A DNA stretch of 64,000 nt from a virus. Shown here piece after piece: positions 15,531 to 28,159 of the stretch (positions are counted from its first letter, which is position 1; each line of letters starts with the position of its first letter). The stretch lies in the IMG/VR virus record IMGVR_UViG_3300029319_000003, positions 120,188 to 184,187 of that record. One strand, 5' to 3'. The notes beneath the pieces were generated by a model, which saw only the letters and a list, made by a program, of their open reading frames with translations, searched no databases and was not told the origin of the DNA. A program made the position numbers and the translations under genes.

Positions 15531-16375
15531 TGTTTTTCTCCTTGTTTGTATATTCTATCAGAGTTTTTCTCTAATTTTAAAAGAATTTTAATTGCATCGA
15601 TAATCCAACTGCTTTTAAAACTGCTGTCAGACATAATAAACTCAATGGGCACATCAGACACCTTATATCGATAGATCTCGGATGACTGCCCAAACACTCG
15701 GCGTGAAAAGAACTGACGGGACTTTTGACCGTAGAACGGAAACTTTTTAAATTGTCTCAGTTCGGATTCCACTGCGGATGTTCTTCGATCATAAATATAG
15801 TATTTGATTTCTGTCTGAAACATTCCACCATATGAAATGAAATTATCAAACTCAAGTTCCTCAAGCACTTCACGCCGATAAGCCTGATAGCCGCTGGTGG
15901 CGTCACTAAAGTCCATCTTCAACCAAAAATTTGCCATGATTGTGCCGATGCGGGAAACCAACTTTCGAAACAGGGAACCCTCATATAGAGAATCTTTTGA
16001 AAACCGAGTGGCAAACACGGCATCATCACCGGCATCAAGTCGATCTAAAAACTCTTTGAGGTGTTCAGGTTTGTGGGAAAATCCCGAATCCATCTCCACG
16101 ATATAATCGTATCCCTGTTCTACACAATGCTTGTAGCCGTAAATATATGAACTAACAAGACCTGTAGAATTCTCATGAAACAACACGACCACATCATCTG
16201 CAAAGTCAGTTTCTAGTATTTCCTGTGTTCGGTCTTTGCTGTAAGAATCCATAATATAAAACACTTGGAATTTATACTGGTCCAGTCGGCTGCACTCCTG
16301 TAATAAACAGGAAGTAAACTCTTTAATAGTTCTTGCTTCGTTTGCAACGGGAATTAAGATTCCAACAGTCTTCAT
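15527..16375 (-). CDS. GT2 glycosyltransferase, polyprenol-phosphate mannosyltransferase-like
   Basis: 282 residues with a GT-A fold of the DPM1 type: GILIPVANEARTIKEF at the N-terminus, YIMDSYSKDRTQEIL, the metal/nucleotide motif VEMDSGFSHKPEHL, and DATSGYQAYRREVLEEL, all typical of dolichol/polyprenol-phosphate sugar transferases. There are no obvious C-terminal membrane segments, so it is probably soluble or peripherally attached. It overlaps its neighbours by ATGA junctions in a five-gene sugar operon with a GDP-mannose dehydratase. A GDP-sugar donor is plausible but not shown. Confidence 0.88.
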   Translation of the reverse strand: MKTVGILIPVANEARTIKEFTSCLLQECSRLDQYKFQVFYIMDSYSKDRTQEILETDFADDVVVLFHENSTGLVSSYIYGYKHCVEQGYDYIVEMDSGFSHKPEHLKEFLDRLDAGDDAVFATRFSKDSLYEGSLFRKLVSRIGTIMANFWLKMDFSDATSGYQAYRREVLEELEFDNFISYGGMFQTEIKYYIYDRRTSAVESELRQFKKFPFYGQKSRQFFSRRVFGQSSEIYRYKVSDVPIEFIMSDSSFKSSWIIDAIKILLKLEKNSDRIYKQGEKQ

Positions 16376-17577
16376 ACTTGTACCCCTACGCTCTTCATGA
16401 ACTTGGAAAAGATCTTTTCATTGTTGATCACTTCCTCTCTTGCATATTGGTAATTGGATACCGCTTGGGCTGCAAGTTCATCAGGGCTTCGCTTCCAAGC
16501 CTCATACGCCATTCGAAGTTTGTGTCTTAAGTCACGGTAATCCGTCTCAACCAAACTCATATCAAGAGTTGAGAACATTGGATTATCAATCATGCAAGGC
16601 TCCATAGAGGAGTCCACAAGATAAGGGTTCTTGTCATCAAAATAATCTCGGTGTCCACCGAGCGATGGTACAATTGCCGTTCTATTAGAGATGACAGCCT
16701 CACCGATAGTCAAGCCAAAACTATCACATCGCGTAGGCAAACAATACACTGACGACTTCTTGAATAACTCTGAAATGTAACTTTTCGCGACGAGCCCGCA
16801 CACCACGTTAATACGCACGCCGCTCTTGTTTCCATAGTGAGTAATTTTATTTTTGAGTTCAGAGATTTCCTTAATAACCTCTGCCTTCTCACTTCTCGGG
16901 TCGGCTCCAACATGTTCGTTTCGGAATGTTTTAATTGTCAACTCAACATCGTCGTGGTGGAAAAATTCATGACACACAGCAGGAATTAAAATGTCCCATC
17001 CTTTTCTCGGGTTCCACTGAGACATGGAAAAGATTTCAAATTTATCCCTATTGAGGGTTTCAGCGTCGGTGCTCTCAATATCAAAAATAGGATGTGGAAC
17101 AAGATGTACATTTTCTTCCGCGAACCCATGATTGAGAAAACACTGCCTTGTGAAATCGCAATACACAATTACATTCCCAACATACTTTTCATAATACTGG
17201 AGCCAGTTAGAAGGCAGTGTGTCTGGTTCCCACGCTAACGATGAGTAGATATTGTCTTTACCAACCCTGTCGATAATCGGATCCCAAAATTTTGCATTGG
17301 CAAACGCTGTTGGAACCAAGTGGCAAATGACTCTTGTGTTGGAGTCCAGATACGCCATGAAGTCATTAGCATCGCCCTGCAATCGGTACTTATTAATCAG
17401 TTCATTTTCTTCATCAGTACATGAGTTTTGTTTTTCAAAGTTCTGAGGGATAACCTTAAAATCAACCTTGTCATCATGCTGCCCCAAAAACATATCAAGA
17501 CACTTCAAGTAATTGCGTGCAGCATTACCATAGCCAGAACTATCATTAAACTGACCGATGTATATAACCTTAGTCAT
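16372..17577 (-). CDS. GT4-type glycosyltransferase
   Basis: 401 residues with a GT-B architecture: an N-terminal acceptor half beginning VIYIGQFNDSSGYGNAARNYL and a C-terminal donor half with FSMSQWNPRKGWDILI and the signature SFGLTIGEAVISNRTAIVPSLGGHRD. The E-x7-E motif is altered (an Asp replaces the first Glu), so activity or the exact position of the catalytic acid is uncertain. ATGA overlap with the GT2 gene and an 8-base overlap with the dehydratase gene indicate one transcript. Confidence 0.85.
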   Translation of the reverse strand: MTKVIYIGQFNDSSGYGNAARNYLKCLDMFLGQHDDKVDFKVIPQNFEKQNSCTDEENELINKYRLQGDANDFMAYLDSNTRVICHLVPTAFANAKFWDPIIDRVGKDNIYSSLAWEPDTLPSNWLQYYEKYVGNVIVYCDFTRQCFLNHGFAEENVHLVPHPIFDIESTDAETLNRDKFEIFSMSQWNPRKGWDILIPAVCHEFFHHDDVELTIKTFRNEHVGADPRSEKAEVIKEISELKNKITHYGNKSGVRINVVCGLVAKSYISELFKKSSVYCLPTRCDSFGLTIGEAVISNRTAIVPSLGGHRDYFDDKNPYLVDSSMEPCMIDNPMFSTLDMSLVETDYRDLRHKLRMAYEAWKRSPDELAAQAVSNYQYAREEVINNEKIFSKFMKSVGVQV

Positions 17578-18571
17578 TGACGCGCCTCTTCTCGCTTTCC
17601 AGATCTGACTCGTACATCATCACAGCCAAATCGCGAAAACTTACTTCTGGCTTCCATCCAAGTGCAGTTTGCGCTTTCGTTGGGTCACCCCAAAGTCTGG
17701 GCACTTCACATGGTCTATAAAAGCGGGGATCAATGCCAACATGCTCTGCGACATTCAATCCTGCATGTTCAAAAACAAATTCTAGAAACTGTTGGACCGA
17801 GTGTGTTGTGCCAGTCGCAATAACATAATCATCAGCCGACTCTTGTTGCAGCATCATCCACATCGCCTTAACGTAATCACCAGCAAACCCCCAGTCGCGC
17901 TGTGCCTCAAGATTACCAAGAAGCAGTTGATCCTGAAGACCCAACTTGATGCGTGCTGCTGCCTTTGTAATTTTTCTAGTTACAAAGTTTTCACCGCGTC
18001 GTGGCGATTCGTGATTAAAAAGAATTCCTGAACTTGCATGCATCTCGTATGACTTGCGGTACACAGAAACCATATTGTGCGCCATCATCTTAGAGACAGC
18101 ATATGGAGAAACCGGCGAGAAGCGAGTACCCTCTGATTGAGGGCATACAATATTATCGCCAAACATTTCTGATGTGGAAGCCTGATAAAACCTAATATCA
18201 GGATTGATATTTCGAATTGCCTCAAGAATATTTAAGGTGCCAATCGCATTTATTTCCGTAGTGCTGATTGGCGACTTAAAAGACTCTCCCACATGTGATT
18301 GTGCTGCAAGATTATAAACCTCAGTCGGAGAGTGTTGGTTGATGACTCTCCACAAAGAAGAACTGTCAGTTACATCGCCAGATTCAATAATGAAGTCTTG
18401 ATTATGCAGCAAGTGCAGAATGTTTCTCTGCTTATCTTCATTTGAACCCACTGTCCTGCGCTGCAAGCCGATCACTTTATAGTCTTTAGACAATAAAAAA
18501 TCAGCAAGGTAGGAGCCATCCTGTCCAGTGACTCCTGTAATCAAAGCCACCTTTTGACTGGATGAACTCAC
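17570..18571 (-). CDS. gmd: GDP-mannose 4,6-dehydratase
   Basis: 333 residues, an extended SDR enzyme of usual length. The nucleotide loop is ALITGVTGQDGSYLADFLL. VYNLAAQSHVGESFKSP and the QASTSEMFGD strand are characteristic of GMD, and YAVSK gives the Tyr/Lys catalytic pair. PRRGENFVTRKIT and LGNLEAQRDWGFAGDYV are also diagnostic. It converts GDP-mannose to GDP-4-keto-6-deoxymannose, precursor of fucose, rhamnose or perosamine sugars. No epimerase/reductase partner lies in the window, so the final sugar must rely on host enzymes or genes elsewhere. It abuts the next glycosyltransferase without a gap. Confidence 0.93.
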   Translation of the reverse strand: MSSSSQKVALITGVTGQDGSYLADFLLSKDYKVIGLQRRTVGSNEDKQRNILHLLHNQDFIIESGDVTDSSSLWRVINQHSPTEVYNLAAQSHVGESFKSPISTTEINAIGTLNILEAIRNINPDIRFYQASTSEMFGDNIVCPQSEGTRFSPVSPYAVSKMMAHNMVSVYRKSYEMHASSGILFNHESPRRGENFVTRKITKAAARIKLGLQDQLLLGNLEAQRDWGFAGDYVKAMWMMLQQESADDYVIATGTTHSVQQFLEFVFEHAGLNVAEHVGIDPRFYRPCEVPRLWGDPTKAQTALGWKPEVSFRDLAVMMYESDLESEKRRVND

Positions 18572-19807
18572 TTAAATCACCACTACGGGAGTATCTTCAA
18601 TCGCTGTCTTATTCTCCTCGATGGCATCAACAACGTGCTGTACAAACTGCTCGTAAACCGTATCGGTTGAATACTTCTCAGTCAAATGAGCCTTCAATTT
18701 CAGCGCCATTGATTCATACTTCTTGTAGTTCTTGAACACTTGCCGCATTTGCTGACGGGCACTGCTTTCAGAAGGATAACACCATTGAGAGCCTTGATTA
18801 ATGACGCCCTCCCAAACATGCTCCGGCTGTACTTCTTTTATTTCATACTTGACAGCAGCAATCATAGTCTTGTTGCGGGTGGTATTCTTCTTCTTTGACC
18901 GACTCTTGACTGGCACTGTTGAGAACTCTGCAAACCCGCCCCACTCGGGAGCAACCAGCGGAATGCCAGCAGAAGCAGCCTCAAAGGCTGGTAGACCCCA
19001 TCCTTCTCCATGAGACAAAGTAGTGTATGCTTTAATCTTGGGGTGGTCATACAAAGATAGAATTTCGTCATTCTGCATGTCGCCATGAAGCAAATAAATT
19101 TTACACAACCTTTCTTCGGGGGCTCCCTTCAAAAGAGATTTGAGGCGGCTTTCTGCATGCATACGATCCAATTTTGAATTGTTCTTAAGAGAAGTTCTGA
19201 TTACCAACCCCACTTCTTCGTTCTGAAATTCGTTAACAAATGCCACAATTGTGTTTTCAAGATTCTTTCGTGGAGCCCACTGGCTGTTCGTGATGAAGTT
19301 AAAATCATACTTCAAGTCCAACGGAACATCTACGTTGTTATATTCGCGAACTGGAAATCCAACGCTGACCACATCTGTTTCTGCAAGTTCCACACCGGCA
19401 TTATAGAACGCATCTCGCGAATGCTTTGACAAGGTGATGACCTTTTCAATTTGCGATGCTACTTGCGCCCACTCTGGTGGCACTGTTGTTGTTTCAACGC
19501 CTGCGGTATACCCAATATTAATTGGGGCAATTGGTTGCCACTCATTTGGAAGTTGCACCTGAAGGGATACATCGAACGAGTTGCCTTCTTGCATATAATT
19601 TATTGTCTTCATGAGGAGGGCGTCAATCGTGCGGCGCTGCTCATCATCCTCAACAATCCAGCCAGTTGCCCCCCAGCCAGTCGCAACCAGATAAATGTCA
19701 AACAAGTCTTCGCGAGACTGTAGGCTCTTCAGCGCAAGTCGCGCCATTTCACCGTACCCACTGCGGGATAATACTGGACCTCTAATAACGATCTTTGTTT
19801 TACTCAT
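18572..19807 (-). CDS. GT4-type glycosyltransferase
   Basis: The ATG at 19807 (MSKTKIVIRGPVLSRSGYG) is preferred over an upstream ATG at 19855 because it overlaps the previous stop as ATGA; 411 residues result. GT-B fold features are an N-terminal RGPVLSRSGYGEMARLAL loop, the donor-half strand FITNSQWAPRKNLENTIVAF and the catalytic motif SHGEGWGLPAFEAASAGIPLVAP with both Glu residues. It probably adds one sugar in the same glycan pathway as its neighbours. Acceptor unknown. Confidence 0.88.
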   Translation of the reverse strand: MSKTKIVIRGPVLSRSGYGEMARLALKSLQSREDLFDIYLVATGWGATGWIVEDDEQRRTIDALLMKTINYMQEGNSFDVSLQVQLPNEWQPIAPINIGYTAGVETTTVPPEWAQVASQIEKVITLSKHSRDAFYNAGVELAETDVVSVGFPVREYNNVDVPLDLKYDFNFITNSQWAPRKNLENTIVAFVNEFQNEEVGLVIRTSLKNNSKLDRMHAESRLKSLLKGAPEERLCKIYLLHGDMQNDEILSLYDHPKIKAYTTLSHGEGWGLPAFEAASAGIPLVAPEWGGFAEFSTVPVKSRSKKKNTTRNKTMIAAVKYEIKEVQPEHVWEGVINQGSQWCYPSESSARQQMRQVFKNYKKYESMALKLKAHLTEKYSTDTVYEQFVQHVVDAIEENKTAIEDTPVVVI

Positions 19808-21099
19808 GCTACTTCCTTCAACTCCCATGATTGATAATTTTTTCTTGTATTCCAAGAGCCATGCTCTTCAATGACGCTTGAAAGGAACTCATCCCACCAC
19901 TTAGTATAAAACTTTAAGTCATGATTTTTAAGCACAAATTGACGTGCAAGTTGACCCATTTCGTTTCGCTCTTCCACTGACATACGATACATGGTTTCCA
20001 GTGCATCTACAACCTCATCAGTGTTGATACGATCCTCATAGATATAGGGAATTGCCTGCGAGCCCACAATACACTTCGAAGATGGCTGGATGCCAATACC
20101 GAACCAGTTCTCGCCATCGGTAACCTGTTGTTGAAGACCACCCGTCATGTTAACAATAATCGGTGTACCACAAGCAAGCGACTCAAGTGTGCCAAGACCA
20201 AAACCTTCAGCGTCAGCAATATTAACGGTTACATCTGCATAGTTGTAGAAGTATGATAACATCTTTGGGTGCAACTTCGCTGTCGAGATCCGAAACTCCG
20301 TGGTAGACAGTCCCAACTCTTGTGCAATGTGTGGCAAGTCCTGACCATGTGGATCGTGAGGATCGGTGTGCATGATTAGCGTTGCCTTTTCGCGTCCGAG
20401 TCGTTGAAGCAATTCATTGAAAATATAAACTAACGTACCCGATTGCTTGCGGCGAGCGTTGCGATTATTCCAGAATATAACAAATCGCTCCTCATCATTC
20501 AGACCTGATTCTGCTTGAAACGCATCCTTCCACACATCATAAGATACTTCCACTTCTTCATCAGAATCTTGCTCTGATACTGGACAGAAAATCTGTGTGT
20601 CAATGCAGTGCGGAATATATTCACATCGCACATCTGGCGACACTGTGCGGACAATATCATCTGTAACCTTTGAAATTGTTGCAATCGCATCGCAAGAATC
20701 ATACCAAATCTTGTTAAACTTTGGATATGGATAGTTGTCCCAAACATGGTAATACACCATTGGGCAAATTGCACGGATCTCGTTTTCAATAGACCACAAC
20801 CAGTCATAAAATCGAGGGTCAGTCATAAACCAAATCATATCTGGGCGTTCCGTTCGAAGAGTTGAACGGATCATATCTGGCGTGCCATATCCCTCAATCG
20901 GAATGATTGTCCAGTCGTCGCCCCACTCTTCAGTGCGTATAGGCTGTGTGGACTTATGCTTGGCTGCTCCACCCAGTGAAACAAATTCATACTTTCCGGT
21001 TGCCAGCAAGGCTTCAATAATATACTTTGTTTGTGTTCCGACGCCCGATGGGGCTAGCGGGTGATCGCCCAAAGTTACGATCTTGATTTTGTCTGTCAT
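19804..21099 (-). CDS. GT4-type glycosyltransferase
   Basis: 431 residues; first gene of the sugar operon in the direction of transcription. The N-terminal half starts IKIVTLGDHPLAPSGVGTQTKYI with the glycine loop. The C-terminal donor half carries FVIFWNNRNARRKQSG and the E-x7-E motif in ADAEGFGLGTLESLACGTPIIVNMTGG. The family transfers nucleotide-activated sugars with retention. It is the third GT4 in the cassette, and the three share the same glycine-rich entry loop (SG[YV]G), suggesting related acceptors. Confidence 0.88.
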   Translation of the reverse strand: MTDKIKIVTLGDHPLAPSGVGTQTKYIIEALLATGKYEFVSLGGAAKHKSTQPIRTEEWGDDWTIIPIEGYGTPDMIRSTLRTERPDMIWFMTDPRFYDWLWSIENEIRAICPMVYYHVWDNYPYPKFNKIWYDSCDAIATISKVTDDIVRTVSPDVRCEYIPHCIDTQIFCPVSEQDSDEEVEVSYDVWKDAFQAESGLNDEERFVIFWNNRNARRKQSGTLVYIFNELLQRLGREKATLIMHTDPHDPHGQDLPHIAQELGLSTTEFRISTAKLHPKMLSYFYNYADVTVNIADAEGFGLGTLESLACGTPIIVNMTGGLQQQVTDGENWFGIGIQPSSKCIVGSQAIPYIYEDRINTDEVVDALETMYRMSVEERNEMGQLARQFVLKNHDLKFYTKWWDEFLSSVIEEHGSWNTRKNYQSWELKEVA

Positions 21100-26686: not shown

Positions 26687-26761
26687 TGGCTGGGAAGGTG
26701 GGATTCGAACCCACGACCGAGCGGTTAACAGCCGCGCACTCTACCACTGAGTTACTCCCCA
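26687..26761 (-). tRNA. tRNA-Asn(GTT)
   Basis: 75 bases with encoded CCA. Acceptor TGGGGAG pairs with CTTCCCA, anticodon loop CTGTTAA giving GTT, T arm GTTCGAA, discriminator G. The outer pair of the anticodon stem is mismatched, otherwise canonical. Confidence 0.88.
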
Positions 26762-26770
26762 ATAAACAAA

Positions 26771-26868
26771 TGGCTGGAGGGGGAGGATTCGAACCTCCAA
26801 GGTGCGCTTTCACGAACTCACCACCGTCGAGACAGGACGGCGCGTCTGCCAAATTTCGCCACCCCCCA
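26771..26868 (-). tRNA. Unusual class-II tRNA with anticodon GTC (Leu-like body, Asp anticodon)
   Basis: 98 bases. Acceptor TGGGGGG pairs with CCCTCCA, discriminator G, CCA encoded. The D arm (TGGCGAAATTTGGCAGACGC) is Leu-like. Anticodon stem CCGTC/GACGG encloses loop CTGTCTC: U33 is present, anticodon GTC, C38 present, but position 37 is T. A ~25-base variable arm (GGTG...CACC) follows and the T arm is normal. GTC is the Asp anticodon, yet bacterial tRNA-Asp has a short variable loop. G73, GUC and C38 are Asp identity elements in bacteria. The charged amino acid therefore cannot be assigned; a degenerate gene is an alternative. Confidence 0.7.
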
Positions 26869-26893: not shown

Positions 26894-27454
26894 ATGAAAA
26901 ACAAAGATCGAAAACTATGCCTTAAAGTTGAATGGTTAAATTTAGAACTGGACGAAACTAATGAAAAGATGGAAGAGTATCGTCTTGAATTTTTAGAAGA
27001 CTTCGAAGAAGAGTTACAATTTTTGAATGCCGGCAAGTCAGAAGAAGAGTTGATTAAAGACCCTAAGCAAATCGAACCTAAACAAAGTCATCATGAGTTT
27101 TTACAAAAACTATATCGCGCTATAGCAAAAATCACCCATCCTGATTTAAACCCCGATGGTAAATACAGCGAGATCTTTAAAAGAGCCAATCAGGCATATG
27201 CCGAAAACAACTGGACAACTATTATATCTATTGCAACAGAACTTCGGATTGAACTTCCAGAATTCCCTGAAGATGTAAGAAAAGAGATCGAAGAAAACAT
27301 CACACACATCGAAACAGACATTGTTCAAACAAAAACTAAAATTGGATGGATATGGGCTGAGTCTAACAAGGAAGACGTGCTTCGTGAAAAAATATACGAC
27401 CTTCTAGGAATCAATAAGGCTGCTTTTGAAATATGGAAAAGATCGAAAAATTAA
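26894..27454 (+). CDS. J-domain (DnaJ-like) protein
   Basis: 186 residues on the plus strand, ATG at 26894. A charged N-terminal coiled region (residues 1-60) leads to a J-domain-like helix pair: HEFLQKLYRAIAKITHPDLNPDG with the HPD tripeptide at ~82-84, then IFKRANQAYAENNW as helix IV. The J domain stimulates Hsp70 (DnaK) ATPase. This protein lacks the G/F and zinc regions of DnaJ and has its own helical C-terminus, so it would recruit DnaK to a special substrate. It is bordered by tRNA genes on the opposite strand and was likely acquired separately. Confidence 0.83.
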   Translation: MKNKDRKLCLKVEWLNLELDETNEKMEEYRLEFLEDFEEELQFLNAGKSEEELIKDPKQIEPKQSHHEFLQKLYRAIAKITHPDLNPDGKYSEIFKRANQAYAENNWTTIISIATELRIELPEFPEDVRKEIEENITHIETDIVQTKTKIGWIWAESNKEDVLREKIYDLLGINKAAFEIWKRSKN

Positions 27455-27549
27455 TGGTAGGGCGAGTGGGATTCGAACCCACGATCTTGCGCTTATCAGA
27501 CGCTAAACCGGATATAAGCCGGTTGCCTTAACCGCTTGGCTATCGCCCC
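27455..27549 (-). tRNA. Unusual class-II tRNA with anticodon TAT
   Basis: 95 bases with encoded CCA. Acceptor GGGGCGA pairs with TCGCCCT (one G-T), discriminator A. D arm GCC...GGC, anticodon stem ACCGG/CCGGT with loop CTTATAT, anticodon TAT (reads ATA, Ile). A 24-base variable arm with stem GCGT/GCGC is inserted, then T arm GTTCGAA. Ile tRNAs have short variable loops, and most bacteria read AUA with a lysidine-modified CAU tRNA, so both body and anticodon are atypical. Charging identity is unknown (Leu, Ser or Tyr enzymes recognise long arms). Confidence 0.75.
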
Positions 27550-27824: not shown

Positions 27825-28159
27825 TGGTGGAGGCGGCGGGAATCGAACCCGCGTCCAAAATAAGTCCAATATAAGTCGTTCACAAGTTTAGTCAGTTTCT
27901 ATCACCCACTGACAAAGATAGACGGTTGTAATCTAATGCTTACCGTCCTGTTGCATTAGATGGTTTGATTTTTACAACTTGTCTGTTGTTTTGCTCAAAT
28001 TGGATAGAAGGTTTTGAGCGACCTCCCGACTAAGCAGCGAGTGCTACAGCGTCGAAGTGTGTGTTGTTATTTGCAACTATTGTGTTTGAACGATTAAGGT
28101 TGTATCTCACCTACTTGCACTTTTTCTCTTTCTTACCCTGTCGAATCCGTATCGCCCCC
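27825..28159 (-). ncRNA. ssrA: tmRNA (transfer-messenger RNA)
   Basis: Minus strand, 335 bases, one-piece form. The 5' end GGGGGCGATACGGATTCGAC and the 3' end with T arm GGGTTCGATTCCCGC and CCA are the classical tmRNA halves. The acceptor GGGGGCG/CGCCTCC contains the G3-U70 pair required for alanine charging. The tag reading frame (28074-28030) begins after ATAGTT and encodes ANNNTHFDAVALAA followed by TAG, so the tag ends in the ALAA protease signal like host tags. Trans-translation would rescue stalled ribosomes and mark the product for ClpXP. SmpB must come from the host. The 143-residue gene upstream ends inside its 5' end. Confidence 0.93.

What the first reader, a model, noticed from the sequence alone, without database searches (positions are those of the whole stretch)
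26771..26868. tRNA with a long variable arm and the Asp anticodon GTC
The folded gene has a Leu-like D arm and a class-II variable arm, which Asp tRNAs never have, but carries G73, GUC and C38, which are the Asp identity elements in bacteria. Thus it may be a chimera charged with Asp, or a Leu-type tRNA that would put Leu at GAC/GAU codons, or a decoy. Class-II tRNAs with odd anticodons are established in nematodes (nev-tRNAs, charged with Leu). I know of none described in phages.
Basis: partly seen in the sequence, partly recalled or inferred. Interest (0 to 1): 0.75.

Follow-up and report, generated by a model that had tools for sequence, protein, structure and literature searches.

The report
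Phage aspartate tRNA on leucine chassis
A marine phage carries a tRNA built like a leucine tRNA, with a long extra arm, but bearing the anticodon and other marks of an aspartate tRNA; it belongs to a wider set of phage tRNAs in which asparagine, aspartate and histidine identities sit on this leucine-like body, which textbook tRNA classes do not include.

Summary
Window 26771-26868 (-) encodes a complete class-II tRNA with anticodon GUC, a Leu-type D arm, a 25-nt variable arm, U1-A72, G73 and an encoded CCA. It is not a one-off. A 305-kb phage-like contig (L271) carries a tRNA 94% identical outside the variable arm, with the same anticodon arm and an unrelated but still paired variable arm. A second phage lineage (L246-L252) has a class-II GUC tRNA with the same CUGUCUC loop. 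A survey of Leu-type tRNAs with foreign anticodons found 38 distinct class-II Asn(GUU) genes, all U1-A72 and G73, and 3 class-II His(GUG) genes, all C73 and G-1. Leu tRNAs all had A73. Discriminators therefore follow the anticodon, not the chassis. The GUC genes mostly carry C38 and G2-C71, which fit AspRS, and Leu-type rather than Ser-type arm geometry. Best reading: an aspartate-accepting class-II tRNA serving GAC/GAU codons; Leu insertion is unlikely. U1-A72, the Asn/GatCAB mark, leaves open amidation to Asn in some hosts. Charging and expression are untested. In passing: the neighbouring tRNA-Ile (27455-27549) has two tandem anticodon arms (UAU, then GAU), a covarying family found in at least 13 other viral contigs.

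The parts
26771..26868 (-). class-II tRNA gene, anticodon GUC (whole gene with encoded CCA)
   Evidence: ARAGORN; RF00005 39.3 bits; fold
26862..26868 (-). acceptor 5' strand UGGGGGG (U1, G2)
   Evidence: pairs 7/7 with CCCUCCA at 26775-26781
26842..26859 (-). Leu-type D arm GCGAAAUUUGGCAGACGC (3-bp stem)
   Evidence: 20-nt D-arm string found exactly in a tRNA-Leu(UAG) of L001
26824..26840 (-). anticodon arm CCGUC-CUGUCUC-GACGG; loop 26829-26835, anticodon GUC 26831-26833, U37, C38
   Evidence: identical arm in L271; identical loop in the L246 group
26799..26823 (-). long variable arm UGGUGAGUUCGUGAAAGCGCACCUU, Leu-type geometry (two unpaired nt on the 3' side)
26782..26798 (-). T arm GGAGG-UUCGAAU-CCUCC
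26775..26781 (-). acceptor 3' strand CCCUCCA (C71, A72)
26774..26774 (-). discriminator G73
26771..26773 (-). encoded CCA end
26687..26761 (-). adjacent ordinary tRNA-Asn(GUU), U1-A72 and G73; a class-I Asn also neighbours the class-II Asp in L271

Best explanation
The gene makes a functional class-II tRNA that is charged with aspartate by the host AspRS and reads GAC and GAU in phage mRNA. It arose by putting the aspartate recognition set (G73, G34 U35 C36, C38, G2-C71) onto a leucine-type body with a long variable arm. It belongs to a recurrent phage group in which Asn, Asp and His identities sit on such bodies. Shown here: anatomy, relatives, and co-occurrence of identity bases with the anticodon. 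Inferred: transcription, processing, charging with Asp, use in translation.
For: Complete cloverleaf with CCA. Near-twin in L271, a 305-kb phage-like contig: 94% identical outside variable arm and anticodon loop, same anticodon arm, but variable arm GUUAUAAC-AAC-GUUAUAAC in place of GGUG..CACC, so the arm changed sequence and stayed paired. Second lineage L246-L252 with the same CUGUCUC loop (CUGUCCC in one), U1-A72 and G73. Leu tRNAs 30/30 A73, class-II GUU 38/38 G73 and U1-A72, class-II GUG 3/3 C73 with G-1: the discriminator follows the anticodon (the pattern that found GUU and GUG genes fixed none of positions 1, 72, 73). C38 in 7/9 GUC genes against 1/38 GUU; G2-C71 in 8/9 against 7/38. 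PMC9976931 lists G73, G34, U35, C36, C38 as strong Asp determinants and G2-C71 as minor. Variable-arm geometry of all 9 GUC genes is Leu-type, none Ser-type. It is the only Asp tRNA in the 184-kb record. GAC and GAU mean Asp as usual: all 14 invariant Asp columns of PhoH are Asp codons here.
Against: No expression or charging data. Bacterial tRNA-Asp has G1-C72 (PMC9976931); this one has U1-A72, and no class-I phage Asp tRNA in my set had U-A. U37 is unusual, although some class-I phage Asp tRNAs also have it. AspRS approaches tRNA from the variable-loop side (own knowledge), so a long arm could hinder binding. Some class-II GUC genes keep A73 (L122, L126) and look like plain recoded Leu tRNAs. 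G73 was part of the pattern that found L271 and the L246 group, so the G73 count among GUC genes is biased. None of 42 other phage records, chosen mostly as PhoH relatives, carries the gene apart from L271's contig.
Confidence: 0.68

Rival explanations
1. The tRNA is charged with Asp and then, because it carries the U1-A72 mark of tRNA-Asn and lacks G1-C72 and U20a, is converted by host GatCAB to Asn-tRNA, placing Asn at Asp codons.
For: PMC9976931: U1-A72 is the amidation determinant, G1-C72 and U20a are antideterminants. U1-A72 holds in both main GUC lineages (7/9), in all class-II Asn and in nearly all class-I Asn. The D loop reads GGCAGA, so no U at 20a by Leu numbering (inference).
Against: Proteome-wide Asp-to-Asn change should harm the phage. 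U1-A72 may simply be inherited from an Asn acceptor stem. It cannot happen in hosts that lack GatCAB, and the host is unknown.
Confidence: 0.1
2. Missense tRNA charged with Ser or Leu through its class-II body, putting Ser or Leu at Asp codons, as nev-tRNAs are charged with Leu in vitro.
For: Leu-type D arm and variable-arm geometry. Leu tRNAs given G73 can switch to Ser identity (PMC9976931). nev-tRNAs are misacylated with Leu in vitro (PMC4300185).
Against: LeuRS substrates have A73 (30/30). Arm geometry is not Ser-type. The coupled C38 and G2-C71 would be unexplained.
Confidence: 0.1
3. A variant or decoy tRNA kept to survive or absorb host anticodon nucleases; the class-II body or U37 hinders cleavage while it still delivers Asp. 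This can hold together with the main explanation.
For: Foreign anticodons on Leu-type bodies are mostly GUN (GUU, GUC, GUG), the group cut by colicin E5-type nucleases (own knowledge). PMC10264068 proposes nuclease evasion by phage tRNAs through anticodon-loop changes.
Against: No nuclease or host known here. The survey fixed a Leu-type D arm and may not be representative.
Confidence: 0.25
4. A decaying or non-functional tRNA gene produced by recombination between tRNA-Leu and tRNA-Asn.
For: Modest covariance score; absent from related phages.
Against: All stems intact, CCA present, near-twin and second lineage elsewhere, variable arm conserved as a helix but not in sequence.
Confidence: 0.07

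Closest known systems
bacterial and phage class-I tRNA-Asp(GUC)
   Same: G73, GUC, C38, G2-C71
   Different: those have a 4-5 nt variable loop, G1-C72 and a class-I D arm; this has a long variable arm, U1-A72 and a Leu-type D arm
class-II tRNA-Asn(GUU) genes of phages (e.g. phiPsa374, annotated tRNA-Pseudo-GTT)
   Same: Leu-type D arm and variable arm, U1-A72, G73, non-Leu anticodon
   Different: GUU with A37-A38 and mostly C2-G71, against GUC with U37-C38 and G2-C71
nematode nev-tRNAs
   Same: class-II body with a foreign anticodon
   Different: eukaryotic; charged with Leu in vitro; here the identity bases changed along with the anticodon
allo-tRNAs (8/4 and 9/3 acceptor-T arms)
   Same: unusual natural class-II tRNAs with foreign anticodons
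   Different: this has the ordinary 7/5 acceptor-T arrangement
bacterial tRNA-Leu
   Same: D arm, variable-arm geometry
   Different: A73 and Leu anticodons in Leu; G73, GUC, C38 here

Membership tests
tRNA-Asp (bacterial type) | anticodon GUC, G73, C38 | tested here: met
   sequence; determinants from PMC9976931
tRNA-Asp (bacterial type) | G1-C72 and G2-C71 | tested here: not met
   G2-C71 present but U1-A72 replaces G1-C72
tRNA-Asp (bacterial type) | class-I (4-5 nt) variable loop | tested here: not met
   25-nt variable region
tRNA-Asp (bacterial type) | aspartylation by AspRS | not testable with these tools
   needs a charging assay
tRNA-Leu | A73 and a Leu anticodon | tested here: not met
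   G73, GUC; 30/30 Leu in the set have A73
tRNA-Leu | Leu-type D arm and variable-arm geometry | tested here: met
tRNA-Ser | Ser-type variable-arm geometry (one unpaired nt 3' of the arm) | tested here: not met
   helix offset (1,2) here, as in Leu; Ser 13/16 (1,1)
nev-tRNA | class-II tRNA with foreign anticodon, charged with Leu | tested here: inconclusive
   class-II with foreign anticodon met; charging untested, G73 argues against Leu
allo-tRNA | 12-bp acceptor branch arranged 8/4 or 9/3 | tested here: not met
   7/5 arrangement, 7 acceptor and 5 T-stem pairs
phage class-II GUC tRNA group (this report) | Leu-type body, long variable arm, GUC, U1-A72, G73, loop CUGUCUC | tested here: met
   window, L271, L246-L252

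The most novel reading that the evidence does not exclude
Phages repeatedly move Asn, Asp and His identities onto a leucine-type class-II body because the long arm protects GUN-anticodon tRNAs from host anticodon nucleases, or alters their handling (for example amidation to Asn through U1-A72), giving a separate phage tRNA class that breaks the rule that only Leu, Ser, Tyr and Sec tRNAs are class II in bacteria.
Probability: 0.25. Interest if true: 0.85.

Novelty: new variant of a known kind. Interest (0 to 1): 0.62.

Why it matters
Textbook bacterial class-II tRNAs are Leu, Ser, Tyr and Sec. A group of phage tRNAs in which discriminator, first base pair and loop bases follow a foreign anticodon on a Leu-type body is a natural experiment in tRNA identity: it asks whether AspRS, AsnRS and HisRS tolerate a long variable arm. 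Annotation programs mislabel or miss these genes: ARAGORN missed the L246-type genes and the phiPsa374 record has 'tRNA-Pseudo-GTT'. If the arm protects against anticodon nucleases, it would bear on why phages carry tRNAs at all. Cultured phages with class-II Asn make it testable.

Tried and rejected
Alternative anticodon register or a second anticodon arm inside the variable region: rejected, no 7-nt loop with a stem there. A sequencing error in a Leu tRNA: rejected, the same anticodon arm occurs independently in L271. Cellular origin: the GUC/G73 pattern scanned over 84,980 species genomes hit one tRNA, and that contig is phage-like. Origin from class-II Asn against Leu: not resolved, body identity about equal (0.72 against 0.73). 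ORF 26894-27454 as a handle on relatives: no hits. blastn of the tRNA against cultured phages found only pieces of ordinary tRNAs. Codon reassignment: rejected from PhoH. Row 'x' of alignment A2 was mistyped by me and is ignored; A4 replaces it.

Full report
What is there. Window 26771-26868 (-) is a complete 98-nt tRNA gene: UGGGGGG UG GCGAAAUUUGGCAGACGC G CCGUC CUGUCUC GACGG UGGUGAGUUCGUGAAAGCGCACCUU GGAGG UUCGAAU CCUCC CCCUCCA G CCA. All stems pair, the variable region is 25 nt with a 4+3-bp arm, and the only sensible anticodon is GUC. Rfam tRNA gives 39.3 bits in a search of the record. The window is positions 120188-184187 of a 184-kb viral record whose other tRNAs are Thr(UGU), Leu(CAA), Arg(UCU), Asn(GUU) and Ile, plus a tmRNA; there is no other Asp tRNA. 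Its PhoH protein is 62-69% identical to that of 80 other IMG/VR contigs.

Is it real? A scan of 84,980 species genomes for a Leu-type D arm, CUGUC loop, long variable region and G73-CC returned 26 stretches, of which one is a tRNA: L271, in a 305-kb contig of MAG TMED69. That contig has an HNH endonuclease, a dCMP deaminase, a cluster of tRNAs of the kind phages carry and a PhoH 43% identical to the window's, so I read it as a phage binned with a bacterium. Its tRNA is 94% identical to the window's outside the variable arm and anticodon loop, with the same anticodon arm, yet its variable arm is GUUAUAAC-AAC-GUUAUAAC: new sequence, same kind of helix. In both, a class-I tRNA-Asn lies next door. 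A second lineage of six IMG/VR contigs (L246, L247, L248, L249, L251, L252; 5 distinct sequences) has class-II GUC tRNAs with U1-A72, G73, loop CUGUCUC (CUGUCCC in one) and a 35-nt variable region. L134 is akin to it; L122 is a recoded Leu with A73.

A wider phenomenon. A pattern for Leu-type D arms with any anticodon whose middle base is not A, leaving positions 1, 72 and 73 free, found 111 stretches in IMG/VR. Among those parsed, GUU dominates: 38 distinct class-II Asn genes, every one with U1-A72 and G73. Three class-II His(GUG) genes all have C73 and a G before position 1. Leu tRNAs in the same data are 30/30 A73. These are the known bacterial marks of Asn and His, so the discriminator follows the anticodon and not the body. 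Cultured phage phiPsa374 (Pseudomonas syringae) has a class-II tRNA-Asn that its record calls tRNA-Pseudo-GTT.

Which amino acid? PMC9976931 lists G73, G34, U35, C36 and C38 as strong Asp determinants and G2-C71 as minor. The window gene has all of them. C38 occurs in 7/9 class-II GUC genes and 1/38 class-II GUU genes; G2-C71 in 8/9 and 7/38. These are counts of related sequences, in effect two or three lineages, so the Fisher values are descriptive only. G73 was fixed in the pattern that found L271 and the L246 group, so that count is biased; positions 1, 2, 38, 71 and 72 were not fixed. LeuRS is unlikely because of G73. SerRS is unlikely because the variable arm leaves two unpaired nucleotides on its 3' side, as in Leu, whereas Ser leaves one (13/16). 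Asp codons keep their meaning: all 14 invariant Asp columns of PhoH are GAC/GAU here, and Asp makes up 7.1% of codons.

The odd base pair. U1-A72 is absent from class-I Asp tRNAs in my data and near-universal in Asn. The review names U1-A72 as the signal for amidation of Asp-tRNA-Asn by GatCAB, with G1-C72 and U20a as antideterminants. In a host with that pathway this tRNA could be turned into Asn-tRNA. I rank this below plain Asp delivery because proteome-wide Asp-to-Asn change should be costly, but it is not excluded.

Why a class-II body? Unknown. Foreign anticodons on Leu-type bodies are mostly of the GUN group. PMC10264068 proposes that phage tRNAs evade host anticodon nucleases; a long arm or U37 might help, untested here.

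Verdict. A real, intact, recurrent class-II tRNA with aspartate identity marks; a new variant of a known kind. Charging and use are inferred.

In passing. The tRNA-Ile at 27455-27549 (-) has two anticodon arms in tandem (UAU, then GAU). The same layout occurs in at least 13 other viral contigs, including L298 from a close relative of this phage. Both arms covary: 98% of cells in the whole structure are paired, and 3 of the 4 pairs of the second arm have changes on both sides. The loop strings TTATA and CTGATAA were fixed by the search pattern; the stems were not. One literature search found no paper on it. It deserves its own study.

Noticed in passing
window 27455-27549 (-): tRNA-Ile of 95 nt with two tandem anticodon arms: CUUAUAU (UAU, 5-bp stem), linker UUA, then CUGAUAA (GAU, 4-bp stem), followed by a class-I variable loop and T arm; A73. 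Same layout in at least 13 other viral contigs (L283-L287, L289-L294, L297-L299), stems covarying; ARAGORN calls it tRNA-Ile(tat) with a long variable region.
   Followed up: partly
window 27825-28159 (-): Phage tmRNA, tag ANNNTHFDAVALAA; many PhoH relatives also carry tmRNAs with various tags.
   Followed up: partly
L135-L244 (one search set): Leu-type tRNAs with stop, Pro, Glu, Gln and Gly anticodons in IMG/VR; stop and Pro ones keep A73 and look like recoded Leu tRNAs.
   Followed up: partly
L271 (genome handle G002, contig C5): 305-kb phage-like contig binned inside the bacterial MAG Methylococcaceae TMED69 (NHDW01000006.1), likely a binning error.
   Followed up: partly
L253 2491-2573 (phiPsa374, NC_023601 27951-28033): Class-II tRNA-Asn in a cultured phage whose record annotates it as tRNA-Pseudo-GTT.
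   Followed up: partly
window 16372-21099 (-): Three glycosyltransferase genes (16372-17577, 18572-19855, 19804-21099) of phrog_2170 close to PhoH.
   Followed up: no
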